From contig OW569369.1 in assembly GCA_937625935.1 (NCBI GenBank), positions 124,001 to 188,000 on the forward strand: a stretch of 64,000 nt of DNA, given 5' to 3'. Within the stretch, counting starts at the first letter, position 1; each line of letters starts with the position of its first letter. The notes below the pieces were generated by a model that searched no databases, was not told the DNA's origin, and saw only the letters and a list, made by a program, of their open reading frames with translations. The translations under genes and the position numbers were made by a program. Source of the DNA: Tetramitus jugosus. Taxonomy: Eukaryota > Heterolobosea > Eutetramitea > Acrasida > Vahlkampfiidae. This document shows, piece after piece, positions 2,067 to 42,197 of the stretch.

Positions 2067-5000
2067 ATGAGTGAAACAAGAAGAAGAAGAAGACAGGCAG
2101 ATGACTCCGGAGCAACATCCGCACCAAAGTCATCCTCCTCCTCAAAATCCGCCGCAGCAGCAGATGCATCCAACGTTGACACTGTCGATGAGAACATCAA
2201 GGTCGATTCCAATCTGTTTGTTCCAGACAAGGAACACGAATATGTCAATGCTCGTGTCATCTCCATGTCAGGCAACAAGGTTACTGTCGTCTTTGATGAA
2301 ACAAATGAAACAGCCGATTTCGATTTGAAGGATGTATATTTAAGGAACCCAAAGGCACTGCACGCCACTGATGATATGGCAAGATTGTCTCACTTGAGTG
2401 AACCTGCTGTGTTGGAGAATTTGAGACAGAGATATGACTTGAACAAGATTTATACTTATTCTGGTCTGTTTTTGGTGGCTGTCAATCCGTACAAGATGCT
2501 CCCCATCTACACCAATGAAGTCATCAAGAAGCACACGGGTAAGAGAAGAAACGATGTTGAGCCTCACGTGTACACCGTTGCCGATGTTGCCTATCGTCAA
2601 ATGTTGACCAACCAGATCAATCAATCCATGTTGGTCACTGGTGAGTCCGGTGCCGGTAAGACTGAAAACACAAAGAGAGTCATCCAGTACTTGACTGCCA
2701 TTGCCGGTGCACAGAGCGGTGGAGGTAAGCTTGAACAACAATTGTTGCAAACGAATCCATTGTTGGAAGCGTTCGGTAATGCAAAGACCTTGAGAAACAA
2801 CAACAGTTCTCGTTTCGGTAAGTTTATCGATATTGCGTTCAATGCCAGCGGATTCATTGCCGGTACCAAGATTGAGCACTACTTGTTGGAAACATCCAGA
2901 GTTGTCTTCCAAGCTGACGGTGAAAGAAATTTCCACTTCTTCTATCAAATGTGCAAGAACAATGAGGCCAGAAACAAGTATGGTCTCAAGGACGTTTCTC
3001 AATACTCGTACTTGAAGGCCGAGAGCGCTGTCGTACAGGGTATGGACGACGCTGCCGAATACGCTGAAACATTGAAGAGTGCCAGAATCATTGGTTTCTC
3101 CGAGGAGGAGATTGATAACATTCAGAGAGCTTCTGCTGCCATTTTGCACCTCGGTAACGTTGTGTTCAATCCGGATGATGAAACTGAGGGATCATTGGTC
3201 GCCAACCATGAACCAACTCAAATTGCTTCTCGATTGTTGGGTGTGGATCAAACTGCTTTGGAAAGAGCATTTACCAACCCAATGTACAAGTCTGGAAAGG
3301 ACTTGATCCAAACCAATGCTACACCTGAACAGGCCAGCAACAACAGACACTCATTGGTCAAGAGTTTGTACTTGAGATTGTTCGATTGGATCGTTTCAAG
3401 AATCAACCAGAACCTCGTGTCCAAGGAAGCAATCAAGAACTCTATCGGTGTTCTGGATATTGCCGGTTTCGAAATCTTTGACTACAACTCTTTTGAACAA
3501 CTCTGCATCAATTTCACCAATGAAAAGTTGCAACAATTCTTCAACAATCACATGTTCAAGAAGGAACAAGAGGAGTACATGAAGGAAAAGATCAACTGGG
3601 TGTTCGAGGACTTTGGTCTCGACTTGCAACCAACTATTGACTTGATTGAGAAGAAGGGTGGTATTTTGGACATTTTGGACAACAATACCTTCATGTCTGC
3701 TTCATCTGACAATGGATTCGCATTGGCTGTCATCAAGGCTCACGAAACTAAGTCCGTGTTCGGCAAGGACAGATTCGATGCCACCAAGTTCAGCGTTAAG
3801 CATTATGCTGGTACTGTACCATACAACACTGAGAACTGGTTGAGCAAGAACGTTGATCCATTGAACGACGACTGTAAGAAGGTCATGAACGCATCTACCA
3901 TTGATTACTTTAGAGCATTGTTCCCAATTGACTCATCTGAGGCTGCAAGAGGCTCTGGTGCCAGATTCAACACTGTTGGTGGTCAACACAGAGAACAATT
4001 GACTGTTTTGATGAATGTCTTGAAGGCAACTGAGCCTCACTTCATCAGATGTATCAAGCCTAACGAATTGCAAAAGCCTGGCATCATTCAAAACAGACCA
4101 GTTTTGGAACAATTGAAGTGCAATGGTGTGTTGGAAGGTATTAGAATCTCCAGAAAGGGTTATCCAGGTAGAATCAAGTATGCTGATTTCTTGAGAAGAT
4201 ATGGCTTGTTGGCTGATAAGACCAAGTTGGCAGAGACTGTTGATCCAAAGGCCAAGTGCAAGTTGGTCACTGCTATCTGCAACATGAACGAAGGATCCGA
4301 TTACCAATTGGGTCAAACCAAGGTGTTCTTAAGAGCTGGTCAAGAAGCTCGCTTGGAAGAAGCAAGAGAAGCCAGATTGGAAACTGTCATGATTGTCGCT
4401 CAAGCTGCATGCAAGGGTGGTTATGAGAGAAAGAGATTGGGCAACATGTTGAAGAAGATCAACTCTGCCAAGCTCCTCCAAAGAAACTACCGTGCCTATC
4501 AACAATTGAAGGACTGGAACTGGTTCCAACTCTTCCAGAGAGCTCGTCCATTGGTTGCTCAAATGAAGAAGGACAACGCCAAGTTGTCCGAGTTGCAAGA
4601 TGAAATCGAAGACTTAAAGGAAGACGTCGAGCACGAGTTGGCTGTTCTTGCTGAGAAGAACAAGGCAAGAGATGCAGTTCAATCTCAAATCGATGGCTTG
4701 AAGAAGTTGTTGCAAGAGAACGCTTCCAAGTACTCCAACATTCAAAAGGATATTGAAGGTTTGCAAGCTGACTTGAAGAAGAAGGAATCTGAATTGCAAT
4801 TCATCCTCGGTGAGAAGCAATCCAAGGACAGTGAGTTGCAACACTACAACTTGCAATTGGACGGTATCAGAAAGCAAATCATTGAGAAGGAGAGAGAAGC
4901 TGAAGATATGGAAGAGCAAATCAAGGACAACCAACAAGCTATCAAGTTGATGGGATCTGATGAAGACACCAAGAACAATGAAATCTTCAGAGCCAAGCAA

Positions 5001-22890: not shown

Positions 22891-25800
22891 ATGAACGTTG
22901 AGTCCTTTTTGAGTGACATTGATTTTTCTGACCCCTCAAAGATTGAAGTCGTTCTGAGTGGCTTCGTTCCAGTGACAAAGGTATGTCGAATATACACAAA
23001 GCTTTCTTGGTTTATTTGCTCACACTAACTGTTCTGTGTGGCACAGAAATTATTGATGGACAAGTTGATTCATTTGGGGTTTCGTGTCGATGAAAACTGG
23101 ACCACAACAAGCAATATCCTGGTGACAGACAGAGTATTTGGCTCTGAAAAATACACAAATGCAGCAGCTGGGCTGTATCCAATTGTTCAGAGTGATTGGA
23201 TCAAGCAATCATTTATACAAGATACGCCACTTCCTCTGAAACCCTTCTTGTTGCCTCCGTTGAAAGGTTTGGCCATTTGTGTATCTCAATTGACAAGAGG
23301 TATGGAACTTATTTGTTCAATATGCACTCTGTTTTATCTTATTGTTTGTAACTCATAAATTCATCCCTCTTTAACTCACTCCACTGTCTCGTGCTTGTTA
23401 TTGTGTTCTTTAGACGAGAGAGAGCAGATTAAAGAAGTAGCAGAGAGAAATGGAGCAACCTATAATCCTTCTCTTCATGACCGGATTACACACTTGGTGC
23501 TTGAGGAACCTACAGGTCCCAAATTTGAGTATGCGAAAAAGTTGCGCAAGTATCAAAAGACGAGAGGCAAGGATTCACTTATTGCAGTCGTAACCAAAGA
23601 GTGGTTTGAAGATTCTGTTCGTCTTGGATATGCTCAGAGTCCACATTCATATCTCTTTCCAGAGATTGACATGGATTTGTCAAATGACGTCTCATTGGAC
23701 ACGAAGCATGGTCATATTCTAGAAACACAAACAATGATACCTAGTCAAACAACAATAACAACAAAACTACAACCGCCATCTCAGCGAGAAGAACTTCAGA
23801 TTGAATCAATTATTGATGAGGCATCATTCCTCGATTCGTGTCACATTTTCTTATTTGGATTCTCATCGAGTAAGCTAAGGGAGGCACATGAATTCGTTGC
23901 TGAGTCAGGGGCTCACTTGGTACCACTTTTACAATCTCATGATCTGACTCATGTTGTGTTGCAGAACAGCTCAAAATCGTATGTGATTCACTTGTGTAAT
24001 TTGATACAAGCAATGATTTTTTTACTAACACGCCAACGCTTGCTTAGAATCGCTACAAGTAGCCTTTCTGTGCACCAAGGAGTCCATATTGTGACATATG
24101 AATGGCTCATTAACTCTTGTAAACTCAAATCAAGAGAACCCGAACATAAATATTCCGTTAGCTCTGCCAATCGATACCTGCCCGCAACTATGCGCGTTAA
24201 ACACGAAACAATAGAGGAGCGTGAAATAGAAGTTCCAACAGTTAACTTCTCCTCTCTTTCTAGATCTAATGGCACAACACCAAATGTCAAATTAGAGAAA
24301 AGAATTGAGTCCGAACCATCACTTATGACAAGTGAGACTCTATTTTGTGGCTTAAAGTTCTTTATTGATCCTTCTTTGGAGGGGTCCTCAAACATCAATC
24401 TAATTGTAAATAATGGAGGTATTATTATGGATGAACCCTCGCAGGTTGACTATTACCTCGCTGATTGGATAAGACATGAAGAGGTGAATCATAACATCAG
24501 AGCAAAATATGTAAATACAATTTGGCTCAAGGTTTGCTTGAAGGAAGCAACTGTGAAGAGCGTGGATGATGAATCCCTGTACAAGACAATATTTAGGAAG
24601 GATGTAGACTGTCGTGGATGGATACGCATGAAAGATGGAAGCAAACCGAGATTTACCACCATTAATACTAAAATTTGCGAACGATACAACTTTGGAAAGC
24701 ATATTATTGAGGCTTTAGGAGGCGAGTTTGAAGCTGAAGGGAAAAAATCTCTCGATTACTTGGTTTGTGGAACGGATGCTGACTCTAAGAAGTATCAATT
24801 CTGTCAAAAGATTGGAACAATTGTTCCATTGAATCGTCAGTTCTTGATTGATAGTGCGTTGAGTGGTCACTTTGTCGATCCTGCTCTCTATCCTTTCCGA
24901 TTGAAATCCAACAAACCTGTCTCTATTCCGCAAACAAGTCCCTCCACCTCTACAACCATCAATATCGATACAAAAGATGCTATCGACCTGCTTGATCGGA
25001 ATAATGGAGCCTCGAGGGATGCAGCTCTAGATGAAGCATCTAATGAATCATATGACTCCTACCGAGCTTGTCCTCCATTAGTGAATGGGAAACCATCTCC
25101 AGGAAAATCGAGAAAATTAATCATAAATAAGCCTGATCCAATTGTGGAGGAAGATGAGATGGAAGATGAAGATTACTATGAGGATAGCTTAGAGTCATCA
25201 AAGAGTAGCGATTCTAATTCGTTTGGAAGTGCGATAAAGAACTACTTTAAGCCATCTGAGGCACCACAGTTCACTCAGCTGAAGACTCAGTTCTATCCTT
25301 CTCAGGAGGAGCAAGATGAGACGAATAGTATTACTAGAACCAGTATTGAAAAAGGAATGGTCAATAGCAACTCTGTGTTATCATCAAAACAAAAACATAG
25401 ATTGGAGATTTCCTATGGTGCTATGAGTGAATCAGATCGAGCTTACAACTCCTTGCTCGAGAAGAAATTACAAAAGGTCGAAACTCCATCAGTTTTGGGC
25501 ACAGCCCTTTCAACGCTTGTTGAATCGCAGGTCATTAAGTACGATATGAGTCATGATGCAAATACTTCACCTCTGCTTCAGAAGAAAGTATTCTTGGTAT
25601 CAGGACAACAATCAAACAAACAACTCTTGAATGATCAGATTGCCCAACTCAACGGCGAAGTAGTTTCGCATTTCGACTCCACTTGCACACATTTAGTGAT
25701 ATCCGAACTATCGAAGACTGAAAAGTTTCTATCAGCCGTTGCGGCACAACTCCTTATCGTTCATCCTACTTACGTTGAGCGTAGTGTAGCTGCGAATAGA

Positions 25801-26301
25801 TGGCTTCCTGAAGATGACTATTTATTTATGCCTCCTTCTGGAGTTCCAAACTTTGGCAAGCCATCAGAGCTGTACAATATGATTCAACGACAGTGTTTAT
25901 CTGGAAAACCAAAGGCATTTTCGAATTGGATCGTTCATCTTGAACTCGCGAGTAATACAAGGGAATCATTTGAGAGAATTTTCCTAGCCGGTGGTGCCAC
26001 AGTGTTGAACGCACTTCCAGAGTCTCAACGAAGCCAAAAGCCAACCCATGTGATCTACAATGGCAAGAATATGAATGAAGAAGAAAAGCGACGACTATGG
26101 AAAACTTATCATGACAAAGAAGATTTGACCATAATTGTCACCTTTGATTACGTGGCTAAGTACCTTGTAGATGATCAGTATCCATATGAAACCTACCAGC
26201 TCCAGTTAGCAGAACCTGACTCTGGTTCCAAAAAGCGCAAAATGTCAGGAAGCGACACGAACTCGGCAGATTCTAAAAGACGTAAAACGAGATCTCGATA
26301 G
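22891..26301 (+). CDS. TopBP1-like multi-BRCT DNA-damage/replication scaffold
   Basis: Four exons: 22891-22980, 23047-23299, 23414-23978 and 24048-26301, about 1,053 residues. The start is the first in-frame ATG and is uncertain. The third intron (69 nt, GTATGT...TTTACTAAC...TTAG) is a multiple of three without stops, so naive ORF calls read through it. At least six or seven BRCT repeats can be seen: two or three in the first 330 residues (WIKQSFI, WFEDSVR, YEWLINSC), two in the middle (TIWLKVCL, FLIDSAL) and two at the end (YVERSVAANRW, DYVAKYL). The tail KKRKMSGS...KRRKTRSR is a nuclear signal. TopBP1/Dpb11 relatives bind phosphoproteins at replication origins and activate ATR. Rtt107 or PTIP is an alternative identity. 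Confidence 0.75.
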
Positions 26302-28674: not shown

Positions 28675-29830
28675 TTAGAACAAGATACTGATGGATTCTT
28701 CGTTGTGCACACGTCTAATGGCTTCTGCAATCAACTTGTTGGCAGACACTTGGACAATCTTCTTCGATTTCTTCTTCTCTTGTGACATTGGAATGGTATC
28801 TGTGACAAACACTGTGTCTATCACGCTACCGTCAATTCTTTGAACACCAGGTCCATTGAGCAGTGCATGAGTGGCACAGGCATAAATCTTCTTTGCTCCA
28901 TTCTCTCTCAAAATTTGAGCACACATGACCAATGTTCCAGCAGTGTCAATCATGTCGTCCACAATAACACAATCTCTTCCTTCAACATCACCCACAAGTT
29001 CCATTCTGGCCACCTTGTTTGCTTCCTCACGCTTCTTGTTCATGACGGCCATTGTCACGTGATTCTTAAAGAAATCAGAATCGTTCAAATCACTTCTGAA
29101 TGAGTCTGCTCTTTCGGCACCACCAGCATCAGGACTCACAACAACGACATCAGTGAATCCATTGCCACGAGGAGATTCACCATTATTTTGCTCTGAACTA
29201 TTGTTGTTGTTCAAATCGATTTCTTCCTGTCTGTCTTGAACCAACTTTCGTATCAATTCTTGAACGAGTACTGGTTTGGCATACAAGTTATCGACTGGAA
29301 CTTTGAAGAAGCCTTGAATTTGACCACAATGGAGATCAACACTCAACACACGATCTGCTCCTGCACTCTCAATCAATCGAGCAACGAGAGCTGCACTGAT
29401 TGGAACTCTAGGCTTTGTTTTTCTGTCTTGTCTTGCATAGCCATAGTAGGCGAGAACGGCTGTGATTCTCTTGGCAGAGGATCTCTTCATTGCGTCCATA
29501 ATGAGACAAAGTTCCATCAAATTGTCATTGACTGGTGTGCAGGTGGGTTGAATGATGAACACGTCGCAACCACGCACATTCTCCTGGATTTGAACACCAA
29601 TTTCCCCATCGGCAAACTTGGTGACATTCAATTTGGAAAGAGGTCTGCCAAGTGATGAAGCAACTATTGATTTTTGTGATCAAATTGTTGATGATTTCGG
29701 TTCGGTTGTTAGCTCTGGGCGGGACAAGTCGTAAAAGAGATATTTTGGCGCCATGTGAAAAAAACATACTTTTTGCGGCCAATTCAGGATTGGACGTTCC
29801 TCCAAAGATTTTCATAGTATAGCCTGTCAT
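28675..29830 (-). CDS. PRPS: Ribose-phosphate pyrophosphokinase (PRPP synthetase)
   Basis: Two exons: 29830-29770 (MTGYTMKIFGGTSNPELAAK) and 29663-28675, separated by a 106-nt GTATGT...AATAG intron, giving 349 residues. The join creates the expected AAKIASSLGRPLSKLNVTKFADGE. Catalytic and binding regions: RQDRKTKPRVPISA flexible loop, SVDLHCGQIQGFF, VVVSPDAGGAERA, and PRPP-binding VIVDDMIDTAGT. It makes 5-phosphoribosyl-1-pyrophosphate from ribose 5-phosphate and ATP for purine, pyrimidine and NAD synthesis. An Asn/Ser-rich insert (about 20 residues after RQEEIDL) is lineage-specific. The frame upstream of ATG 29830 begins with GTG and is probably leader. Confidence 0.93.
29743..29752 (+). 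promoter_or_regulatory. E2F-like site TTTTGGCGCC inside PRPS intron 1
   Basis: The motif lies within the first intron of the PRPS gene, next to a GGGCGGGA stretch at about 29717-29724. It could mark an intronic enhancer or an alternative start upstream of exon 2. Confidence 0.4.
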
Positions 29831-30044: not shown

Positions 30045-30063
30045 TTAAGGTGGCCGTCCACTG
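30045..30063 (+). repeat. Left terminal inverted repeat
   Basis: TTAAGGTGGCCGTCCACTG; it pairs with 34612-34630 with a single mismatch (C versus G at position 11). Inverted similarity stops after base 19. Confidence 0.7.
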
Positions 30064-30064
30064 A

Positions 30065-30097
30065 AGAAATCGTATAAATAGGAGAAATCGTATAAAT
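30065..30097 (+). promoter_or_regulatory. Duplicated TATA-containing 18-bp unit
   Basis: AGAAATCGTATAAAT occurs at 30065-30079 and again at 30083-30097, so two TATAAAT boxes lie 18 bp apart directly inside the left TIR and 75-100 bp before the first plus-strand ATG of the element. Confidence 0.5.
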
Positions 30098-30169
30098 TTA
30101 CACATCGGACAACAAGTCAAACAACGAGAAACACATCAACTCGCTTTCCTATTATAATGAATACTGCCT

Positions 30170-30844
30170 CATGGTTCTGTTGGTGTTGGTTGTGTCACAA
30201 ATTGTCACAGGAGACTGCGAAGGTGATGTGCCCGTGCACATTTCATTGTTGATGGATTCAGAAGAGGATATCTCTGTGATGTCCTCTGTTTCGTGAAGAC
30301 CTCGCATCAGTTTCTCAAGATCGTTTGTTTCTTCCTCAGTGTTGTTGCTGCTGTTGTTCTCAACTTCCCTTGGTGTTTGTGTTTTTTAAGGGCATATCGT
30401 GAAGCTGCAAAAGAAGGATTTATATCCGTTGCACGTGCAATCTATTCAAACGCTCTATCGGAATTCCCCACTAAAGCCATACAACTTGATCATCTGAATC
30501 TTTGCCTCCCTCGTCTTCTCATCAGGTATATTCTTGACCCAACTACATCATTTGTCAACAACATCACATACACAATTATACTCAAAAACAACAAGTATGG
30601 GCAATTGCAGCTATATACATACTCTGGAACGAAAAATCTTGACTTCCTATCAATGTACTTTTGTGTCCGATTCACTAATCGTTCACTCATCAACTGTAAG
30701 CATTCTGATTTTTCAACCCACCACAGTGCATACACATCGGGCACTGTTGCATTCGACGATAACTTGACTTCACAATTGGCAGGCAACCCCGCAACCACCT
30801 TCTTCACACTACAATTAAAAAACATATACAAAACAATAGTTTAA
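30170..30844 (+). CDS. Possible secreted protein in the mobile element (two exons)
   Basis: ATG 30170 opens a signal-peptide-like frame, MVLLVLVVSQIVTG, that stops after 42 codons. A frame from 30293 to 30844 continues if a 47-nt GTGAAG...CTCAG intron (30293-30339) is removed. The joined product would be about 208 residues, with a second hydrophobic stretch, a Asn/Thr/Ser-rich middle and several potential N-glycosylation sites (NITY, NRSL, NLTS). The donor is not the GTATGT type usual here, so the model is weak. I do not recognise a family. The duplicated TATA unit upstream supports transcription. Confidence 0.3.
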
Positions 30845-30917
30845 CTTTACAAAAACATTCTTACAAATTGTAATACACAAAACAAAAAATACATACGCCT
30901 TTAACAAATCATTCTGT

Positions 30918-31382
30918 TTATTGATTAACAACTCTCCACCCTCCAGGGACCAATTCAAATTGTTCCCATGAACATGCCAAGTAGAATCCCTTCCACTTCA
31001 CATAACCATACCAAGAACCATTTTGATACTTCCAATCCAGAACATCATCAATTTGATAGAACTGTCCATTGGAGGTGTAGTTTTGGTGAATGTGACAGTA
31101 CTGGGTTCCACGTTTCCTTTGCAATTTGCACGGTAAGCCTGACTTGCAAACGGCCAAACAGTATGAGTACAAATTGTCCATATAAGACCTTATTGTTGAT
31201 AGATTATTGACCATCGAAGATCGAAAATCCCGACACGTCAATACCAAATTCAACACATCTTCTACACCAAGGAACGAACCAACTAGATACACAAATAAAT
31301 CAATATGTATATCGGTTATTCTTACTTTTATGTTGGTTATGTCTTCTTTTGGCGCCTTTTCCTTGTTTTCCCATTTGTTCAT
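30918..31382 (-). CDS. F-box / small zinc motif / chromo-like protein
   Basis: A 154-residue protein from ATG 31382. Residues about 22-70 form an F-box-like helix set (IDLFVYLVGSFLGVEDVLNLVLTCRDF). Residues about 78-100 hold a short zinc-type motif, CKSGLPCKLQRKRGTQYCHIH, of the C-x5-C...C-x-x-H style. The C-terminus (about 110-150) reads IDDVLDWKYQNGSWYGYVKWKGF...SWEQFELV, which resembles a chromodomain or chromo-barrel with the aromatic-cage strand YxVKWKG. It lies inside the TIR-bounded element, so it may be cargo. Chromo modules also occur in transposon integrases, but no integrase is present. Confidence 0.55.
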   Translation of the reverse strand: MNKWENKEKAPKEDITNIKVRITDIHIDLFVYLVGSFLGVEDVLNLVLTCRDFRSSMVNNLSTIRSYMDNLYSYCLAVCKSGLPCKLQRKRGTQYCHIHQNYTSNGQFYQIDDVLDWKYQNGSWYGYVKWKGFYLACSWEQFELVPGGWRVVNQ

Positions 31383-31383
31383 T

Positions 31384-31655
31384 GATTTTTTTCATCAAAA
31401 AAACTTGCAAAAAACAGAAAACAAACACTCTGAAGGACATCGTGAGAGCGAGTGACCTGATGATGAGTATGAGTTTTCTGAAGTTTGTCAAATTCTGTCC
31501 TATTGATACCATTAGAGATTTTTTCATCAAAAAAAACTTGCAAAAGCACAGAAAACAAACACTCTGAAGGACATCGTGAGAGCGAGTGACCTGATGATGA
31601 GTGTGAGTTTTCTGACGTTTGTCAAATTCTGTCCTACTATTGATACCATTAGAGA
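31384..31655. repeat. Head-to-tail tandem duplication (about 133 + 139 bp)
   Basis: Two nearly identical units, 31384-31516 and 31517-31655, start with GATTTTTTTCATCAAAAAAA and end with TTGATACCATTAGAGA. They differ by a few substitutions and short indels (for example AGTATGAG versus AGTGTGAG and an inserted CTA). The pair lies between the F-box/chromo-like gene start and the VPS35 fragment and fills that intergenic space. Confidence 0.85.
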
Positions 31656-31697
31656 GGTGTTGAATTGTCCGATAACTTGAGTATTCAGATCTCATTG

Positions 31698-32300
31698 ATG
31701 ACACTTGCTCTTCAAACATATCCTGATAACACTGACGATGTCAACAAGATTATTAATAACATTGCTAGTCAATTGAATAGCACTGCACTTGCTTCAGATG
31801 AAATTGTAGACATGTTGAAGCGATTGTTGTTGGTGCCACTCGAGTCATACAACAATGTGCTAACAGTTTTGAAGTTGGAGAAGTATGGTGATATTATTCA
31901 TTCTCTTGGATATGAACAGAGAAAGTTTATTGCACTGAGCATTGTGAGATGCGCACTTGACAATGGACACAAGATTTCAACATTTGAACAAGTGAACAAA
32001 CCGTTTGATTTGATTCGTCCACTGTTGAAGGATGAGGAAGACCAGACAACATTCTCACCTTCTGACGACTCACCAATAGCTGCAACATTGCTCGAAGATT
32101 TCGAAGAAGAACAGAACTTGATTGCCAGATTGGTTCATTTGTTTGACAATAGCGATTCTGATCAATTGTTTAAAGTTTTGGCCGCAGCCAGAAAGCACTT
32201 TGGTCAGGGTGGTGTCAAGAGAATTCAATACACATTGGTACCACTTGTATTCTCCTACTTGAAACTTGCTCAGAGAATCTACAATGCACACTGCGAATAG
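31698..32300 (+). pseudogene. Internal fragment of retromer subunit VPS35
   Basis: The frame is open from a TAG near 31650 to TAG 32300; the first ATG is 31698. The translated sequence matches only a middle part of VPS35: ISLMTLALQTYPDN, RLLLVPLESYNNVLTVLKLEKY, EEQNLIARLVHLF, and ARKHFGQGGVKRIQYTLVPLVF, the last being highly conserved in the family. In a normal VPS35 of about 790 residues this corresponds roughly to residues 385-610. Both the N-terminal retromer-assembly half and the C-terminal VPS29-binding half are missing. It borders the tandem duplication and lies inside the TIR-bounded element, so it is best read as a captured gene fragment. The frame is intact, so expression is possible. 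Confidence 0.75.
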
Positions 32301-32627
32301 ACACCTCTTGTCGACTCTCCATCTTTTTTGATTGATTTGGTTGTTGTTGTTGATGTTCGTTGTGCGACTTGTGTTTTTCGTTGTTGTTGTCGCGTTCAAG
32401 ATTGGATAGATAGGTGGATATATTATAAAAAAATACAATAAATGTTGTATCAGTTTCCTCTAAGCTGCGGAATTGGTGCAGTTGTAAAAATTTCCGTTGA
32501 GACTGTCTTTACAACGGCAACGGCCATCTACCTCGGTTTAAAAAGCGCTGTCTTTTTCGCTGTTTGATTCATCTCACACAACAAATACAACACAACAAAT
32601 ACACCACACAACAAATACAATAACATT
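32301..32627 (+). promoter_or_regulatory. Fanzor upstream region and repeated leader
   Basis: This 327-bp gap holds no gene. A GTT-rich stretch near 32340 is followed by AT-rich DNA, then a GGTTTAAAAAG TATA-like element near 32535. The leader from 32578 to 32618 has three copies of ACAACAAATAC, ending at the Fanzor ATG. Confidence 0.5.
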
Positions 32628-34541
32628 ATGCCACGAGGCGTGCCTAAGGACGGTAAGAGAAAGAGAAAGAGAGAGACTGTCAAAAAGAATGAATACTCAT
32701 CACATTACGTGGTCAAGGTCGGTCTGAAGTCTCTGTTGTTGCATCATCCAACTCTGTTACCAATCATACAAACTCAAGCTCTGGAGATTACAAGGATTGC
32801 TCTTCGACTCACAAGATTTATAAACATTTTTGTTTTGAGGCACTTGGAGAACAATTGTGATATCCCTCTCTTGAATCAAGGATTTATTCAACGAATCGGT
32901 TCAGTGTTGTTTGGACGCAAGTCGAAGACAAGAGACGATAATGTCAACCTCATCAACGGGTCAGTCAACATGGATGACGTAATAATCAAGCTAAGGAAGA
33001 TTTGTGAGAAGTTATCCAAATCCATCAATTACGTTGCCAAGTCTCTCAATGTCAATATTTCTAACATGCTCAAGTTCACATTGGAACAAAGACTGAGAAA
33101 GTACTTGAGAGTGAGGATGGCTCAATTGCACAATGGTCAATCAATCCCCAGGTCTGAATACAGAAGAGTAGTAGAATACATCATCAGAAAGTTGACATTT
33201 GTCACTCCAGTTTATGATTTTGTCAAACTGCCTCCAAAAGAGTTGATAGAGACTATTCCTGTGTTGATCCAAGAGGTTCGAACATTTGTTGGTGCTGAAA
33301 CCGACGAAGTGGTTGATGAATCGTTTGTGAACAACAACACCAATAACATGCTGAAGTTTTACTGGCATGTTCAACAGTTTCTGATTGTCAATGGAACAAA
33401 ATCATTTGCATTGTTGCCCTTGTCCCACTTTAAATGTAGATGCATGGAGATAGGTACAACGGACCTGATAGACATGCTCCAACAGAAGAAGAAGGGAAAT
33501 GTACAAGTAATTGAACCCATTGAATTGAAGTATAATCTCAAGTGTTTGAATGTTGGAACAAAGAAGATTCAAATCGACTCAATCAGAACAGACGGTATTC
33601 AGGCCTCTGTTGTTCTCAGACATCAACTCGTTGGCATCCACAAGAACAATAAGGCAAAGGTATCCAAGGGCCAGAAAGAAGCAAAGAAGATGAAGAAAGA
33701 AGCAACTATTGTTGATCAAAATGCAGATTACTTGATTGGTATCGATCCTGGTATTGTCACATTGATGAGTTGTGCAGATTCAGATGGTAAAAAGTGGGAG
33801 TTCTCCAATAAGGCATACAGACGACTGTCTCATCATTCACAGAACGCCAAACGTTTGTTGAAATACAAAGCAAAATGGAACACGAAAACTGGAAAAGATT
33901 TAGATGAACTCCATAATTCGATCAAACAAGCCAGTGTATCGACAAGTGATCTGTTTATCGAACACATTGATTCTGTTTTGAAAGTCGAAGATGACTTGCT
34001 TGGTTTTTATTGCACTCCAAAGGTGAAGAGACTGAATTGGGACAGCTATATTATGAGAGACAAAACAATTGCTGGAGTAATGAATGATTTTCACAAAAGA
34101 GCAAATGGAAGAAAGATGGTCATTGGCATGGGGAATGCTGGTTTCAAAAATAGTTACAGAGGACATGCTTCAACGCCCAAGGGCAAGCTGTTGAAGAAAC
34201 TGAATGAACGATTTGAAGTGAAAATGATTGACGAATTCATGACCAGCCAAAAATGTTGTGCTTGCCATTCCCATTTGAAGCCAGTCAAGCACAAACGAAT
34301 GGACAAGAAAGGTGTATCGGCAATCTCTATTGTACGAGGAGTTAAGCAGTGTGCAACCACTAAATGTTTAGTGACTCACAACAGAGACATCAATGCGGCC
34401 AAGAACATGCTCCATCTACTGAGAACAGAAATGGATGGACAGTCACGTCCCGATGCCTTCAAGAGGAAGAAAAAGGTCGCAAAAGAATTAATCAAAATGG
34501 TGGAACACCTCCAAGGCTCACTCCATCAAGCTGCTATGTAA
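32628..34541 (+). CDS. Fanzor (eukaryotic TnpB-like RNA-guided nuclease)
   Basis: A 637-residue intronless protein. The N-terminus, MPRGVPKDGKRKRKRET, is a nuclear-signal-like basic patch. The helical N-terminal half (residues about 30-300) has no clear domain, as in Fanzors. The RuvC nuclease begins at IGIDPGIVTLMS (D373). The canonical RuvC-II Glu position reads VIGMGNAGF, without Glu; an alternative Glu, E536, is in IDEFMTSQKC, the rearranged arrangement reported for Fanzors and some TnpBs. A zinc ribbon inserts between motifs: C543-x2-C546 and C575-x4-C580. RuvC-III is HNRDINAAKNM (D587). All catalytic residues and all four cysteines appear present, so it may be active. Family members are guided by an RNA encoded at the 3' end of the gene. 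Fanzor type 1 versus type 2 is not resolved. Confidence 0.9.
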   Translation: MPRGVPKDGKRKRKRETVKKNEYSSHYVVKVGLKSLLLHHPTLLPIIQTQALEITRIALRLTRFINIFVLRHLENNCDIPLLNQGFIQRIGSVLFGRKSKTRDDNVNLINGSVNMDDVIIKLRKICEKLSKSINYVAKSLNVNISNMLKFTLEQRLRKYLRVRMAQLHNGQSIPRSEYRRVVEYIIRKLTFVTPVYDFVKLPPKELIETIPVLIQEVRTFVGAETDEVVDESFVNNNTNNMLKFYWHVQQFLIVNGTKSFALLPLSHFKCRCMEIGTTDLIDMLQQKKKGNVQVIEPIELKYNLKCLNVGTKKIQIDSIRTDGIQASVVLRHQLVGIHKNNKAKVSKGQKEAKKMKKEATIVDQNADYLIGIDPGIVTLMSCADSDGKKWEFSNKAYRRLSHHSQNAKRLLKYKAKWNTKTGKDLDELHNSIKQASVSTSDLFIEHIDSVLKVEDDLLGFYCTPKVKRLNWDSYIMRDKTIAGVMNDFHKRANGRKMVIGMGNAGFKNSYRGHASTPKGKLLKKLNERFEVKMIDEFMTSQKCCACHSHLKPVKHKRMDKKGVSAISIVRGVKQCATTKCLVTHNRDINAAKNMLHLLRTEMDGQSRPDAFKRKKKVAKELIKMVEHLQGSLHQAAM

Positions 34542-34611
34542 GTCCCGATTATGTAGGAGCGTTAAGGTGTCTTCTCGGGAAATCATAATTTTTTTATTAT
34601 GGTTTGATCGA
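34542..34611 (+). ncRNA. Candidate Fanzor guide-RNA (fRNA) scaffold
   Basis: Directly after the Fanzor stop, non-coding sequence shows nested pairing. TCCCGA (34543-34548) pairs with TCGGGA (34575-34580). AAATCATAAT (34580-34589) pairs with ATTATGGTTT (34596-34605) as a hairpin with one G-U. A TTAAGGTG copy at 34562-34569 can pair with CACCTTAA at 34623-34630 in the right TIR. In TnpB/Fanzor systems the scaffold overlaps or follows the 3' end of the ORF, and the guide is the sequence just past the element's right end. Here that would be the RPC3 3' end. This is inferred from position and pairing; no transcript data are available. Confidence 0.45.
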
Positions 34612-34630
34612 CAGTGGACCGCCACCTTAA
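34612..34630 (-). repeat. Right terminal inverted repeat
   Basis: CAGTGGACCGCCACCTTAA, the inverted partner of 30045-30063 at 18 of 19 positions. It ends 10 bp before the stop codon of the convergent RPC3 gene. Confidence 0.7.
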
Positions 34631-34640
34631 TGAGCTGAAG

Positions 34641-36797
34641 TTAAAAATCTTCAAAGAACATGAGTAAAGTGTTTAGGTGGATGAGCGAAGCTTCCAGCCG
34701 ATCTTCCACTTTCTCTAAACGATAGATAAATGCTTGTTGTTCCTTGCTGAGATTGTTCAAGCTGGTCAAAAATCCACCACCAGTTGCGTTCACGGCGTCC
34801 TCTTGTTCCTTTGCCAGTCTACTTCTCAAGTTTCTGCATGTCTTGTACATGTTGTTGGTCAACTTTTCGTATACGAGGTCTAACTTGACATTCCATAAAT
34901 AAAAAGTTCTGGATGGAGCATGATCAGAATGCTTAGGCACTTCTTGAAGCTCCACTACTTCGTCTTGAAGCATCTTGTACAATAGAGTACGTGCTTCAGG
35001 CATAGGAATCATGGCAAATTCTGCAATCTGTTTTTGTTCCAACATTTTGTTCATTAACAACATTCTGAAGATTCTGCAACCGACTTGGCCGTGCTTTTGT
35101 TCTATGATACTCTCGGCGTATTGTTTCTTCAGCTTATCGACGATACCTGCTAGGTTGATGACATAGGATCCACCACCGGATTGAGAGCTCATTTTTTGCA
35201 AAATTCTCGTGTTATCTTGTGACATAATGTCCAGATATTTTTCAACATTACGCTGACTTGCTTGATATTCATCACCGGTCAACACAGCCTTAAAAATATC
35301 ATCAAAATGAACCACTGAAGATATTTGATCGTTCTTTGTCTTTTCGTATGGTGAAGTCAGATTGAGAATAGCACGAAAGATGGAAGCAGCAGTAGGATTG
35401 ATTCTTTCGGACACATACTTGGTAATGGCCTCATTTCTGAATGTTCTAATAAATTGATCAAAATTGACCATCCATAACACAGGATCTTCTCTCTTTGGCT
35501 GCTGCTGTTGTTGTTGTTGTTGTTGCTGCTGTTGAAGCTGTTGTTGTTGTAATTGTTGTTGTTGCTGTAATTGTTGAAGTGCTTGTTGTTGTAGTTGCAT
35601 CTGTAGTGCTTGTTGCTGGTGCTGTTGTAGCAACTCAGTTCCAGGCATCGGTATATTGAAGAAGAAGACATCGTCATCATTGCTTGATGATGCATGACCA
35701 TTCGTTGGTGGCATATTGGTCATCAATCCATTGTTTGGTTGCTGCAAGACGTTGACTACTACTTCGTCTTCATCATCGTCATCAACCAACATATTTCGTC
35801 TTCTTTTTCTCTTTTGGACATCCATTTCTGGCATGTCTTGTCCCGATGGACTCTTCCTCTTATTGTTTTTTCGTTTCTGTTCAAACTGTTGCATTTCAAT
35901 CATTTGTTGTTCCTTGAGTGTTTCCTTTAGCGTTTTATTGGTGGTCACAACTGTGGATTTGAGTTTTGATGCACTCTTGTTGAACGCTCCAGACTGAGTC
36001 TCCACATCTGAAATATATTTGACCACACGCTTCAAGAAACGATTTCTAACCATGGCATCAAACGCGTTTTGAACACTTCTCTTAAATCCATTCAAGACAG
36101 AGTTGTTGGCATTCATATCGTCCAATGACATTTCCTGAACATGAGTTGAAGAGTCACTCTGCAAATAGAGCTTCTGAGCAATCACATCCACAATTTGTTC
36201 GCTCGTGAGTCGACCATGCTCCAACAACTCTTCCATAATCAATTCACCGTTCGATCCAACTCGATCCTTGATCAATAGAATAAATTTTGCGCACTTCAAT
36301 CTCATTAACACCTCATCAATCATAATTTCATAGAAAAATGTAGTTTCTAGCGTGTTTTGTCTCGTGCTCGACTCTCCACTAGCAATGATTGCATCTTCTT
36401 GATCAAACAAGAGCGATGAACCACCTCCATTGACTCCAGCACCATTAGGCCTCTTCCACTTTTTGTTCTTCTCATTCATTTCTCGTTCCTTCTCGAATGA
36501 TAGCAGACCAACGTTTGATCTCGTTGAAAAATTGTCTGGATCCGATGCGTCCTTCTTGTCTCTCACCATTTGTTTCAATCTTCTCTCTTTTTCTTCCTTG
36601 TCGTAGAAGATGACCATGTTGTGCTGAATGAGCACCAATAGTGCGTTACGTACCTGTTGAAAGGTTAACTTTGTCTTTCGAATCAGTTCGACAAGTGTCA
36701 AAACGCCTTCCTTGAGCAGACACTCACCCACTTTCTCTACCAAGTCACCAAAGTGGTCATGTAGAATATTCATGGCCAATTTTACTCTGTTTGACAT
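34641..36797 (-). CDS. POLR3C: RNA polymerase III subunit RPC3 (RPC82/POLR3C)
   Basis: A 718-residue protein from ATG 36797. It begins with the family's winged-helix pattern (AMNILHDHFGDLVEKVGECLLKEG...LTFQQVRNALLVLIQHNMV). A second block follows (RLKCAKFILLIKDRVGSNGELIMEELLEHG). The C-terminal winged helices include QIAEFAMIPMPEARTLLYKM and VPKHSDHAPSRTFYLW, both diagnostic. RPC3 forms the RPC3-RPC6-RPC7 initiation subcomplex that opens Pol III promoters. A lineage-specific Gln-rich insert (about residues 395-435, CAA/CAG repeats at 35498-35640) and Lys-rich linker lengthen it beyond the usual roughly 530-650 residues. Its 3' flank is cut short by the Fanzor element. Confidence 0.9.
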   Translation of the reverse strand: MSNRVKLAMNILHDHFGDLVEKVGECLLKEGVLTLVELIRKTKLTFQQVRNALLVLIQHNMVIFYDKEEKERRLKQMVRDKKDASDPDNFSTRSNVGLLSFEKEREMNEKNKKWKRPNGAGVNGGGSSLLFDQEDAIIASGESSTRQNTLETTFFYEIMIDEVLMRLKCAKFILLIKDRVGSNGELIMEELLEHGRLTSEQIVDVIAQKLYLQSDSSTHVQEMSLDDMNANNSVLNGFKRSVQNAFDAMVRNRFLKRVVKYISDVETQSGAFNKSASKLKSTVVTTNKTLKETLKEQQMIEMQQFEQKRKNNKRKSPSGQDMPEMDVQKRKRRRNMLVDDDDEDEVVVNVLQQPNNGLMTNMPPTNGHASSSNDDDVFFFNIPMPGTELLQQHQQQALQMQLQQQALQQLQQQQQLQQQQLQQQQQQQQQQQQPKREDPVLWMVNFDQFIRTFRNEAITKYVSERINPTAASIFRAILNLTSPYEKTKNDQISSVVHFDDIFKAVLTGDEYQASQRNVEKYLDIMSQDNTRILQKMSSQSGGGSYVINLAGIVDKLKKQYAESIIEQKHGQVGCRIFRMLLMNKMLEQKQIAEFAMIPMPEARTLLYKMLQDEVVELQEVPKHSDHAPSRTFYLWNVKLDLVYEKLTNNMYKTCRNLRSRLAKEQEDAVNATGGGFLTSLNNLSKEQQAFIYRLEKVEDRLEASLIHLNTLLMFFEDF

Positions 36798-39350: not shown

Positions 39351-42128
39351 TTATTCGTCGCTCGTCAGATCACACACCTCTGTTGATTGTTGACTAGCAT
39401 TGCTTGTGAGTGCCCAGAGATCATTGTCATCGAATGTAACATTCTTCTTGGGGCTAAGAGACTTTTCAGCCACGTGGCAGATCTCGACTTCTGCGCCACT
39501 GGCAATCAGAACATCAATCCATGCGTGTTGTTTATCACTCAATCGATCTCTTGGACCTTTCACCTCGCTGAACATGGCTGTTCTAGAGTCTGGACTCCAC
39601 AGAATAAGGTCTGGCATTCCACTCCGATTGTGTCGATAGTCTTCTGACAACATACGACAAACAGCACTGATTACTGCACCTGTGAAGCAATGGCATATAT
39701 CAACCAAGTCTTGAATACTGAAGCTGTCCCATTTTCCAACACAACTGTCCACACCATATTGTTCTTGCCAAACTGTGCGTAGTGTATTTTCCATGAAGCT
39801 CTCATTGTCTTCCCGTATTGCTAGTAGTCGCTGCTCAATCTTGTCCTGTCGAGAAGCAAAGAAGGCATCTGTGCCCAGATCGAGAGGAGCCGACTGATAC
39901 TTGGATTGGAAAACATTTGGGATGCTGGAATCATAGATAATATCCCAAAAGAGCAATCCGAACATGGTTGACCAGACAGAGCCCTCACAGTGCATTCCCT
40001 TTGAGAATCTACTCTTGTGCAAGTAATACTGGAGGGCCAGTTCTTCTACTGTACAATTACTCTGCTTATCATAGGAGAGGAATCTACTCTTACGCGAAGC
40101 TTGACCTGGTGCCATCAATATCGATTGAATATGAACATCACGAGCCTTCTTCAAATCTAAGAATTGTAATTCCTTAGACAAGTTGAGCCATGTTTTACAC
40201 TTACGATTCAACCGTTCTGCTCGATTTTCAAGGGTGTATCTTTGTGCAGTTCTTAATGTTTTATCTTCTCTCAATGCGGTGAGACAAATCTCTAAAGCTT
40301 CCTTGTGTTGATTCATATGCTGTAGGTCAAGGGCGAGTCTGTTCCACCATTTTCCTCTTCTTCCTGAAACGAAAGGAGAATCTAACAATTCACGCAAGTG
40401 GAATGTCGCCTTTTCATAAAGTTTCTGTTGTTCCAGCATTGTCACACCCATAGATACAATCTTGGCGTAGATCCATCCTGCAGTGAATCTTAATAAATAA
40501 TGTTCGTTGGCTGAGATGATACTGTCAGCTTTTTGTTGGCGATAAAGGGCAGTTTCCTGGCATAGACCAGATACTGCTTTGTCCAATGTCTCCATCGTAA
40601 TCTCAATTTGATCATTCTGATCGAAGTCATCGTCTTGTTGGAACCTTGAATAAATTTCCATCTCATCTTCGCCTTTGTATGAAAGCAATCGAATAGATTG
40701 TTCATATCTATCCAGATCCTTTCTCGTCTTGAATACAGATATTGGTTTGTATTCATATTGGGGAAACTTGCGAATGTTCTTCGACTCAAGCACCATTATT
40801 GAAGCATCACGTGAACTTCTATCCAAGAAAAACAAATGATGTATCCGGCGGAATACCTCCTTTGCTAAGGGAGTTATCCGAATGAACTTTGTTTTAAAGT
40901 GGGATTCGATCGCACTATACACATTTTTCAAATGTTTCATTGTGTTATCCGATGGTGATCCGGTTGTCTCTTGAGAGTTGCTCGTTGCCTTAAAGAATGA
41001 GTGAATTGTCTTCTGCTTGGTTTTTTCAGCACTATTCATGTTCGAAGACTTTGTATCACTTACAATCAAATCAATAAGTGTGACCTTTTTTGGTGAAACA
41101 CTCGGCAGCTCTCTTCTTCCCTTCTTTTGTGTTTGTTGCAACTTCTTTGAAGGCAAGAAGCGTCGGATTCTCTTTGCTACTAATTCCAGCTCTGCTGTTG
41201 TACAAGAACTCAAAATTTGCCGTACATTCTTCTCATACTCCTCAATGCCCTTACTTGGTGACTCGTCCATCGAAAACTGTTCTACATAACGATGAGTGAT
41301 TAACTCTTCAAAGAGTGATTCGAATGAATTAGAGCTCTCTTGTTCTTCGTGGCTTGATGTTTCTTCACTCTCATTCTTCATCATTTGACTAAAATCATTC
41401 TTGCTGTTCTCGGTTTCTTCCTCTTCGTGCTGAGAAAAGTCATCCGAGTATCTGCTCGTTAACTTAATGGTTTGAAACCATTGCCACTTTCTATTGTACA
41501 GTCGAACGAATAATCTCTGAGCTTTCGAACTCAGATTCTTCTGAAATCCATCCAAATAAATTGCTTCATTGCGTATTTTCTCCAGCTCAACAGAATCTAG
41601 ACTATGATCCTCGTTAGACGATTCACCCTCGGTAACCTTTTGTTCTGGCACTTGAAACAGATGAGCATCCTTCTCCATTACCGTCTCCAGAATATGAATA
41701 AAATTCTTGAGATAATAGTGTCTTGGTTGCCTTTCAGAATTGTTATCTTGAGAAGAACCGAATAAGGAATGCCAACTATCTTCACCTACTTCTAGACTCT
41801 GAGACTGTGACTCTTCATCCTGAGTTAATGCTAAATCTTGTTCACTTTGTGTCGTGGAGCCAATAGATGATCTTTGACTATCGCTTGTGAGGTCATCTAT
41901 CAACTGAGAATCTACATTACTATCCAACTCTTCTCCATCAACAATCGATGAACAAGAACTGTATAATTCTGATTCTTCTGTCTGAGAGGCTTGTTGCTGA
42001 GAATCAAAATAGGCCTGTGAACAAACTACGCTCCCAAAAGTCCTTCTCTTTTTGGTGAATGGTACAGTGGAGGTAGATGTCTTGGATTTAGAGGCAACAC
42101 TTCCTGGAGTGGATAACTTTCGCTTCAT
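39351..42128 (-). CDS. FAN1: FAN1 structure-specific nuclease
   Basis: A 925-residue protein from ATG 42128 (TTG lies upstream). The N-terminus is basic (MKRKLSTPGSVASKSK...KKRR), a nuclear signal. The middle is Ser/Glu-rich and then helical (SAP/TPR-like region of FAN1, for example WWNRLALDLQHMNQHKEALEICL). The C-terminal VRR-NUC domain has the PD-(D/E)XK site: GMPDLILWSP (Asp about 839) and SEVKGPRDRLSDKQHAWIDVL (Glu-x-Lys about 854), the FAN1 signature. FAN1 unhooks interstrand crosslinks. No UBZ zinc finger is apparent at the N-terminus, as in many non-animal FAN1s. An E2F-like site lies 70 bp upstream. Confidence 0.9.
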   Translation of the reverse strand: MKRKLSTPGSVASKSKTSTSTVPFTKKRRTFGSVVCSQAYFDSQQQASQTEESELYSSCSSIVDGEELDSNVDSQLIDDLTSDSQRSSIGSTTQSEQDLALTQDEESQSQSLEVGEDSWHSLFGSSQDNNSERQPRHYYLKNFIHILETVMEKDAHLFQVPEQKVTEGESSNEDHSLDSVELEKIRNEAIYLDGFQKNLSSKAQRLFVRLYNRKWQWFQTIKLTSRYSDDFSQHEEEETENSKNDFSQMMKNESEETSSHEEQESSNSFESLFEELITHRYVEQFSMDESPSKGIEEYEKNVRQILSSCTTAELELVAKRIRRFLPSKKLQQTQKKGRRELPSVSPKKVTLIDLIVSDTKSSNMNSAEKTKQKTIHSFFKATSNSQETTGSPSDNTMKHLKNVYSAIESHFKTKFIRITPLAKEVFRRIHHLFFLDRSSRDASIMVLESKNIRKFPQYEYKPISVFKTRKDLDRYEQSIRLLSYKGEDEMEIYSRFQQDDDFDQNDQIEITMETLDKAVSGLCQETALYRQQKADSIISANEHYLLRFTAGWIYAKIVSMGVTMLEQQKLYEKATFHLRELLDSPFVSGRRGKWWNRLALDLQHMNQHKEALEICLTALREDKTLRTAQRYTLENRAERLNRKCKTWLNLSKELQFLDLKKARDVHIQSILMAPGQASRKSRFLSYDKQSNCTVEELALQYYLHKSRFSKGMHCEGSVWSTMFGLLFWDIIYDSSIPNVFQSKYQSAPLDLGTDAFFASRQDKIEQRLLAIREDNESFMENTLRTVWQEQYGVDSCVGKWDSFSIQDLVDICHCFTGAVISAVCRMLSEDYRHNRSGMPDLILWSPDSRTAMFSEVKGPRDRLSDKQHAWIDVLIASGAEVEICHVAEKSLSPKKNVTFDDNDLWALTSNASQQSTEVCDLTSDE

Positions 42129-42197
42129 GGGTGCGAGCAAGTCGAACAGAAATATTTTTTGTGTTTATCAATGTTCGACTTCCAGTGAATTTGGGAA

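What the first reader, a model, noticed from the sequence alone, without database searches (positions are those of the whole stretch)
32628..34541. Intact Fanzor nuclease gene
The 637-residue ORF has the RuvC-I Asp (D373), an alternative RuvC-II Glu (E536 in IDEF), four zinc-ribbon cysteines (C543, C546, C575, C580) and the RuvC-III Asp (D587), with an N-terminal basic nuclear-signal-like patch. Fanzors are eukaryotic TnpB relatives shown to be RNA-guided DNA nucleases; examples from Naegleria are known. All catalytic positions are kept and the frame is uninterrupted, so this copy may be functional.
Basis: partly seen in the sequence, partly recalled or inferred. Interest (0 to 1): 0.85.

Follow-up and report, generated by a model that had tools for sequence, protein, structure and literature searches.

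The report
Self-targeting Fanzor transposon with repair scars
This is an intact RNA-guided DNA-cutting gene carried by a multi-copy jumping element, and broken relatives elsewhere in the same genome carry scars that look like the enzyme cutting empty insertion sites so that the element is copied back in.

Summary
In detail: 32628-34541 (+) is an open 637-codon Fanzor1 gene with D373, E536, C543/C546/C575/C580 and D587. The best match among solved structures is Spizellomyces punctatus Fanzor1. The gene is part of a 4586-bp DNA transposon, 30045-34630, bounded by TTAA and inverted repeats. The element also has a predicted guide-RNA scaffold ending at the right TTAA, and a fragment of host VPS35. 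I found 40 right ends of the family; 19 of 20 full-length Fanzor matches lack stops; dN/dS is 0.09-0.21. New: in 5 of 18 copies that kept the right end but lost the left, the left junction repeats TTAA plus the first 6-22 nt of that copy's own right flank. Mismatched pairs do so in 0 of 304, two-ended copies in 0 of 14. A cut about 20 nt past TTAA in guide-matched empty DNA, then aborted copying from the right end, should leave this. I read these as in vivo footprints of Fanzor-driven homing. RNA expression, motif use and cutting are inferred. The transposase was not found.

The parts
30045..34630 (+). whole transposon, TTAA to TTAA, 4586 bp
   Evidence: inverted TTAA-TIR pair (2 matches at up to 3 mismatches, 0.11 expected); the near-identical C22 copy also has both ends
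30045..30065 (+). left TTAA and terminal inverted repeat
30293..30844 (+). 183-aa ORF, no Pfam match; may be non-coding
30918..31382 (-). 154-aa ORF, only sub-threshold zinc-finger, snurportin and F-box-like hits
31387..31655 (+). tandem duplication of about 137 bp
   Evidence: L009 1260-1391 against 1392-1528 self-match, 94%
31613..32290 (+). captured internal fragment of host VPS35
   Evidence: Pfam Vps35 E 1.2e-42; 669 of 681 alignment positions identical to the gene at C22:83229-83909
32628..34541 (+). Fanzor1 nuclease, 637 aa
34526..34630 (+). predicted guide-RNA (omega RNA) scaffold, overlapping the last codons and ending at the right TTAA
   Evidence: MFE -31.0 kcal/mol, z -2.95; CGTTAA and the final CCTTAA kept in 10 of 10 aligned rows; expression not tested
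34562..34569 (+). TTAAGGTG, predicted to pair with CACCTTAA at the right end
34614..34630 (-). right TTAA and terminal inverted repeat
34631..34652 (+). predicted guide: first 22 nt of the right flank, running into the end of the neighbouring POLR3C/RPC82 gene
   Evidence: inferred from the published guide layout and from the footprints at other copies

Best explanation
The gene encodes a Fanzor1 RNA-guided nuclease that keeps and copies its own non-autonomous TTAA transposon. Steps. (1) A transposase supplied in trans (not found) inserts the element at TTAA. Shown: TTAA and inverted repeats at both ends. Inferred: the transposase. (2) The guide RNA is transcribed from the end of the ORF to the right TTAA and runs into the flank, so each insertion writes a guide against its own empty site. 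Inferred from anatomy, fold and literature. (3) TTAA, the insertion duplicate, doubles as the target motif. Inferred: GtFz1 uses TTAAN, and the duplications start at TTAA. (4) Fanzor cuts the empty allele or sister about 16-21 nt beyond TTAA. Inferred from duplication lengths. (5) The right-hand broken end invades the occupied copy and synthesis runs leftward through the element. If it finishes, a full copy results; if it aborts and joins the left-hand end by short microhomology, the result is left flank-TTAA-guide-truncated element-TTAA-guide-right flank. Shown: this structure at 5 loci. Inferred: the route.
For: Fanzor1 identity and purifying selection. TTAA-TIR element with 40 right ends found: 28 of one TIR type, 12 of a second. 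31 of 39 right ends read keep TTAAGG in the scaffold, and it can pair with the right end under both TIR types. Footprints at C3_522567, C24_126331, C25_365156, C48_129368 and C52_269743: own-flank scores 16, 19, 23, 13 and 15 at the junction, against at most 11 in 304 mismatched pairs and at most 7.5 for the same loci's flank further out. Duplicated guide lengths, read by eye, are 12, 18-20, 21-22, 6-9 and 8-11 nt, none above 22; SpuFz1 cuts after 16/17 and 20/21 nt (PMC10432273, passages). Joins show 1-3 nt of microhomology at four loci and a 6-nt filler at C3 (by eye). 18 of 40 copies with a right end lost the left end. GtFz1 motif TTAAN (one sentence of PMC11423790 swaps the GtFz1 and SpuFz1 motifs, a later passage gives TTAA for GtFz1). 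In Chlamydomonas, Fanzor1-bearing CRe-1/2/3 copies are 5'-truncated, keep their 3' ends and mostly carry 7-19-bp duplications just downstream of TTTT, while a Helitron family of similar ends without Fanzor almost never does, 1 of 200 (PMC3627910, section 8 read).
Against: 13 of 18 left-lost copies show no duplication, so most of the truncation is unexplained or eroded; C47_119538 and C52_91097 share their right flank and are probably one event. In scans of all sequence held upstream two matches of similar size lie away from the junction: an AT-rich one of score 17.5 near C48, not starting at TTAA, and a 13-nt one inside C2_615330 that does start at TTAA; the case rests on the position at the junction. 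Two of the five duplications are imperfect: C24 has 2 mismatches, C25 a 1-nt gap. At least two copies keep the left end and lost the right (C45, C12); such copies were not counted genome-wide because searches did not complete. Three copies with open Fanzor frames have lost part or all of the scaffold (C3, C11_444281, C34), one of them a footprint copy. Helix conservation is sequence identity, not compensatory change. In Chlamydomonas some duplications are much longer (44-443 bp), and the authors offered element length as another cause for the difference. No expression, cleavage or second-strain data.
Confidence: 0.66

Rival explanations
1. The truncated copies are one-ended insertions or random break repair by the TTAA transposase and host machinery; Fanzor is a passenger and the duplications have nothing to do with guided cutting.
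For: Transposons are known to leave truncated copies by failed gap repair (recalled). C45 keeps the left end and has TTAA right at its 3' junction without a longer duplication. 13 of 18 left-lost copies have no duplication.
Against: A 4-bp staggered TTAA cut gives no reason for 6-22 nt of flank to be repeated. Random breaks would give duplications of all lengths; none above 22 nt was seen in the sequence held left of each junction (277-1941 bp for 17 of the 18). All five repeats begin at TTAA.
Confidence: 0.2
2. A LINE-type reverse transcriptase copied transcripts of the element into TTAA sites; 5' truncation and short duplications are ordinary target-primed reverse transcription.
For: 5' truncation, variable duplications, short microhomology and filler at the 5' join are typical of LINE products (recalled); junctions.
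Against: In the five footprint copies the 3' end is exactly the TIR and TTAA, with no poly-A. C48 begins within about 50 bp of the left end, and C3 keeps about 2 kb upstream of the Fanzor ORF, so a transcript would have to start next to the left TIR. Two-ended copies of the same family have TTAA and TIRs. Reverse transcriptases in the genome were not searched.
Confidence: 0.08
3. The Fanzor has been taken over by the host for another job, and the transposon context is history.
For: Strong purifying selection.
Against: Many scattered copies, some 99-100% identical, 22 of the 40 right ends with a left end too, point to a mobile family rather than a single domesticated gene.
Confidence: 0.05

Closest known systems
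SpuFz1 and Spu-1 elements of Spizellomyces punctatus (PMC10432273, passages; PDB 8gkh)
   Same: Fanzor1 protein with matching D-E-D and zinc-ribbon positions; inverted-repeat element with no transposase found; guide RNA at the 3' end; copies that keep the RNA end but lack the gene ('ghost' loci)
   Different: TTAA ends instead of a conserved CA before the left repeat and a CATA motif; host-gene fragment inside; footprints not described for Spu-1 in the passages read
GtFz1 of Guillardia theta (PMC10432273, PMC11423790, passages)
   Same: Fanzor1 whose required target motif is TTAA(N), the sequence found at both ends here
   Different: GtFz1 loci were reported to lack inverted repeats; its third catalytic residue is N, here D587; no GtFz1 chain appeared in the sequence searches
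CRe-1/2/3 Fanzor1 elements of Chlamydomonas (PMC3627910, section 8)
   Same: 5'-truncated, 3' ends intact, short duplications directly after the target tetranucleotide, mainly in truncated copies
   Different: Helitron ends and TTTT motif; some duplications of 44-443 bp; read by the authors as one-ended rolling-circle transposition, before Fanzor was known to be a nuclease
TnpB in IS200/IS605 elements, cut-and-copy retention and gene drive (PMC11870625, abstract and passages)
   Same: guide written from the flank, empty site cut, element restored by recombination
   Different: bacterial, single-strand TnpA transposition; drive in plasmids shown by experiment there, only sequence scars here

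Membership tests
Fanzor1 | D-X(125,275)-[TS]-[TS]-X-X-[C4 zinc finger]-X(5,50)-RD motif (PMC3627910 abstract; shared with TnpB and Fanzor2) | tested here: met
   D373; T539 S540 Q K; C543/C546/C575/C580; five residues, then R586 D587
Fanzor1 | RuvC DPG and rearranged Glu six residues before the first zinc Cys (PMC10711439, passages) | tested here: met
   D373-P374-G375; E536 then FMTSQK then C543. The zinc spacings (28, then C-x4-C) exceed that paper's TnpB search pattern
Fanzor1 | sequence relation to a characterised Fanzor1 | tested here: met
   SpuFz1 E 5.3e-16 (residues 131-614) and 1.3e-22 with the profile; no chain named GtFz1 or PpFz1 appeared up to E 10 and E 1 respectively
Fanzor1 | Fanzor1-type fold with REC/WED lobe and clustered D-E-D | tested here: inconclusive
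   model pLDDT 40, pTM 0.27; no fold search run
Fanzor1 | 3'-end guide RNA with TIR and TSD in its scaffold | tested here: inconclusive
   stable fold and conserved sequence; no RNA data; no Rfam match up to E 1
Fanzor1 | RNA-guided DNA cleavage | not testable with these tools
   footprints only
piggyBac transposon | TTAA target duplication | tested here: met
   empty sites not seen
piggyBac transposon | piggyBac transposase inside the window element | tested here: not met
   no such domain in the four ORFs of the left arm or in P0001
piggyBac transposon | a piggyBac transposase element elsewhere that shares these inverted repeats | tested here: inconclusive
   none of the 12 PF13843 matches lies at a listed TIR site; one copy had no TTAA-TIR within about 1.5 kb on either side; three others could not be fetched

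The most novel reading that the evidence does not exclude
The truncated copies are fossil records of a eukaryotic RNA-guided homing system at work: Fanzor cuts the empty allele at TTAA plus about 20 nt, the element is copied in from its right end, and failed attempts leave a scar whose length reads out the cut site. The Chlamydomonas CRe duplications described in 2013 would then be the same scar with another motif (TTTT), so the biological job of Fanzor1, reported as unknown, would be transposon homing and could be read from genome sequence alone.
Probability: 0.58. Interest if true: 0.88.

Novelty: new variant of a known kind. Interest (0 to 1): 0.72.

Why it matters
The natural role of Fanzor cutting was stated as unknown in the 2023 paper (PMC10432273, passages). 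Scars that mark the motif, the cut position and the direction of copying would give evidence from inside a genome, and a simple test to run on any genome with Fanzor elements: look for motif-plus-guide duplications at truncated copies. The case also ties a TTAA-duplicating transposon to the TTAA motif known from GtFz1, whose own loci were reported to lack inverted repeats.

Tried and rejected
Structure prediction from six rows gave pLDDT 40; no fold search was run on it. A profile protein search gave only four further proteins, three of them short, P0007-P0009. A piggyBac copy (L059) was checked for TTAA inverted repeats and none was found. A plain segmental duplication as the source of the near-identical C22 copy was rejected: the right flanks differ from the TTAA on; its left flank was not compared. 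The VPS35 piece as an intact host gene was rejected: it is an internal fragment. A 13-nt match of the C2_615330 right flank inside that same element was left as probable chance. C39 was counted as left-lost and then found to have a probable diverged left end; C2_615330 took its place; the count is 5 of 18 either way. The first junction scan missed the C3 footprint because L003 did not reach the junction, and for C48 it reported an AT-rich match elsewhere; one search's best-hit column repeats that match. The C48 footprint was read and scored, the C3 one. Helix pair counting was skipped, since the closing-helix columns are nearly all invariant. No tree was built.

Full report
WHAT IS THERE. The reported ORF is real and open: 32628-34541 (+), 637 aa. 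Pfam finds the Cas12f1-like TNB domain at E 9e-10, and the best solved relative is Spizellomyces punctatus Fanzor1, E 5.3e-16 with the protein (residues 131-614) and 1.3e-22 with a six-row profile. The published Fanzor/TnpB motif (PMC3627910 abstract) is met. In the same 26.3-Mb genome a protein search gave 66 matches; 20 span residues 1-637, and 19 of those 20 have no internal stop. dN/dS was 0.09-0.21 in 12 of 12 pairs tested. AlphaFold2 with six rows failed (pLDDT 40).

THE ELEMENT. The gene lies in a transposon at 30045-34630, bounded by TTAA and an imperfect inverted repeat (2 matches, 0.11 expected by chance). At the right end the similarity of 20 oriented copies stops, by eye, at the TTAA and different flanks begin; one copy (C24) has TTGG instead. 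Searches with the two right-end types gave 28 ends of type A (27, plus C2_615330 found through its Fanzor copy) and 12 of type B. These 40 are a lower bound; 39 were read (C16:148641 was not held). Of the 40, 22 have a left end too, two of these by a judged, altered end (C8_461447, C39), and 18 have lost it. Both types share the scaffold up to ATTATGG and differ after it, so one Fanzor module has been joined to two transposon ends; a much diverged Fanzor (39-44% identity) at C32 also has type-B ends. The left arm carries an internal piece of VPS35, 669 of 681 positions identical to the gene at C22. Copies are mosaics: against the C8 copy, in 250-bp bins, 31295-32794 is 98-99% identical, 32795-34294 is 76-88%, and 34295-34544 is 93%. 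Neighbours are host genes: POLR3C/RPC82 at 34641-36797 (-), ending 10 bp from the element, and a ribose-phosphate pyrophosphokinase at 28675-29631 (-).

GUIDE RNA. The last 105 nt (34526-34630) fold with z -2.95; two other copies give -2.71 and -3.53. TTAAGG, kept at this place in 31 of 39 right ends, can close a helix with the CCTTAA of the right end, and ten aligned copies, including the two most diverged, all keep CGTTAA and CCTTAA (C10 has a 1-nt gap in TTAAGG). Of the other eight, C10 has that gap, four are remnants too short to hold the scaffold (C25, C11_254197, C47, C52_91097), and three copies with open frames have lost part or all of it: C3, C11_444281, C34. This agrees with published Fanzor1 guide RNAs, where repeat and target duplicate are part of the scaffold (PMC10711439, passages). 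No RNA data were available, and Rfam has no match.

THE FOOTPRINTS. In left-lost copies I compared 52 nt around the left junction with TTAA plus the first 26 nt of the same copy's right flank. Five of 18 match (C3_522567 16, C24_126331 19, C25_365156 23, C48_129368 13, C52_269743 15). Of 304 pairings of a junction with another copy's flank none reached 13 (maximum 11), and the same 18 loci's flank at +27 to +56 gave at most 7.5. Fourteen of the two-ended copies gave at most 8 (the other eight were not in that call). The repeated part, read by eye, is TTAA and then 12, 18-20, 21-22, 6-9 and 8-11 nt in that order of loci, followed by the truncated element with 1-3 nt of microhomology at four joins and a 6-nt filler at C3. 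The other 13 show nothing of the kind; C47_119538 and C52_91097 look like one insertion in a duplicated locus. Scanning all upstream sequence instead of the junction also turns up an AT-rich match of 17.5 near C48 and a 13-nt match inside C2_615330, so it is the place, not the score alone, that counts.

READING. SpuFz1 cuts after 16/17 nt on one strand and 20/21 on the other, GtFz1 after 14-17 next to TTAAN (PMC10432273, passages). A cut of that kind in the empty site leaves left flank-TTAA-guide on one side. The other side, starting inside the right flank, can copy leftward from an occupied allele, first the guide, then TTAA, then the element from its right end. Stopping early and joining gives exactly the observed order. 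The right-end bias (18 of 40 lost the left end) and the absence of duplications above 22 nt fit. C45, with the left end kept and TTAA directly at its 3' junction, looks like failed repair after transposase excision instead.

PARALLEL. Bao and Jurka (PMC3627910, section 8 read in full) described Chlamydomonas Fanzor1 elements that are 5'-truncated, keep their 3' ends and carry duplications of mostly 7-19 bp just after TTTT, in about 70, 57 and 10% of three families, against 1 of 200 for a Helitron family of similar ends without Fanzor. Some were longer, 44-443 bp. They left open whether Fanzor or element length made the difference. A TTTT motif plus guided cutting would explain it; that is my inference. 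Cut-and-copy retention and gene drive are known for bacterial TnpB (PMC11870625, abstract and passages). No paper linking Fanzor to such scars, or to a TTAA transposon, was found in searches. That library lacks most subscription papers, and of the listed papers I opened six, mostly as passages: PMC10432273, PMC3627910, PMC10711439, PMC12324416, PMC11423790 and PMC11870625.

LIMITS. One genome, no strains, no RNA, no enzyme test, organism unnamed. The transposase is unknown: 12 piggyBac-domain matches exist but none at a listed TIR site. Left-only copies were not counted genome-wide.

Noticed in passing
window 31613-32290; G000:C22:83229-83909: A VPS35 exon fragment was captured by the transposon (98% identical to the host gene). 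The left-arm stretch holding it (31391-32450) matches the longer copies at 93-98%, although their Fanzor genes differ far more, which suggests spread by recombination between elements.
   Followed up: partly
window 32545-33545 against 33795-34295: Window copy against the short C16 copy: 96-99% identical up to about 33545, 87% in the next bin, then about 78-80%, then 93% at the 3' end; Fanzor genes look recombined.
   Followed up: partly
G000:C3:522567, C11:444281, C34:437609: Copies with open Fanzor frames but a guide scaffold partly or wholly deleted; they could only supply protein in trans.
   Followed up: no
G000:C10:247203, C24:126311: Copies reduced to about 108-118 bp that hold little more than the predicted guide RNA and right end, like the ghost loci of Spizellomyces.
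   Followed up: partly
G000:C47:119538 and C52:91097: Two 35-bp right-end remnants at loci with near-identical right flanks; probably one insertion later duplicated with its locus.
   Followed up: no
G000:C18:38735-39766, C39:393561-394592: Two piggyBac-domain genes with the same score and open frame (582 codons); no TTAA inverted repeats near the C18 copy; possibly domesticated or of another family.
   Followed up: partly
window 2067-7856, 23395-26301, 39351-42140: Host genes by Pfam: myosin heavy chain, a BRCT-repeat protein and a FAN1-like VRR nuclease.
   Followed up: no
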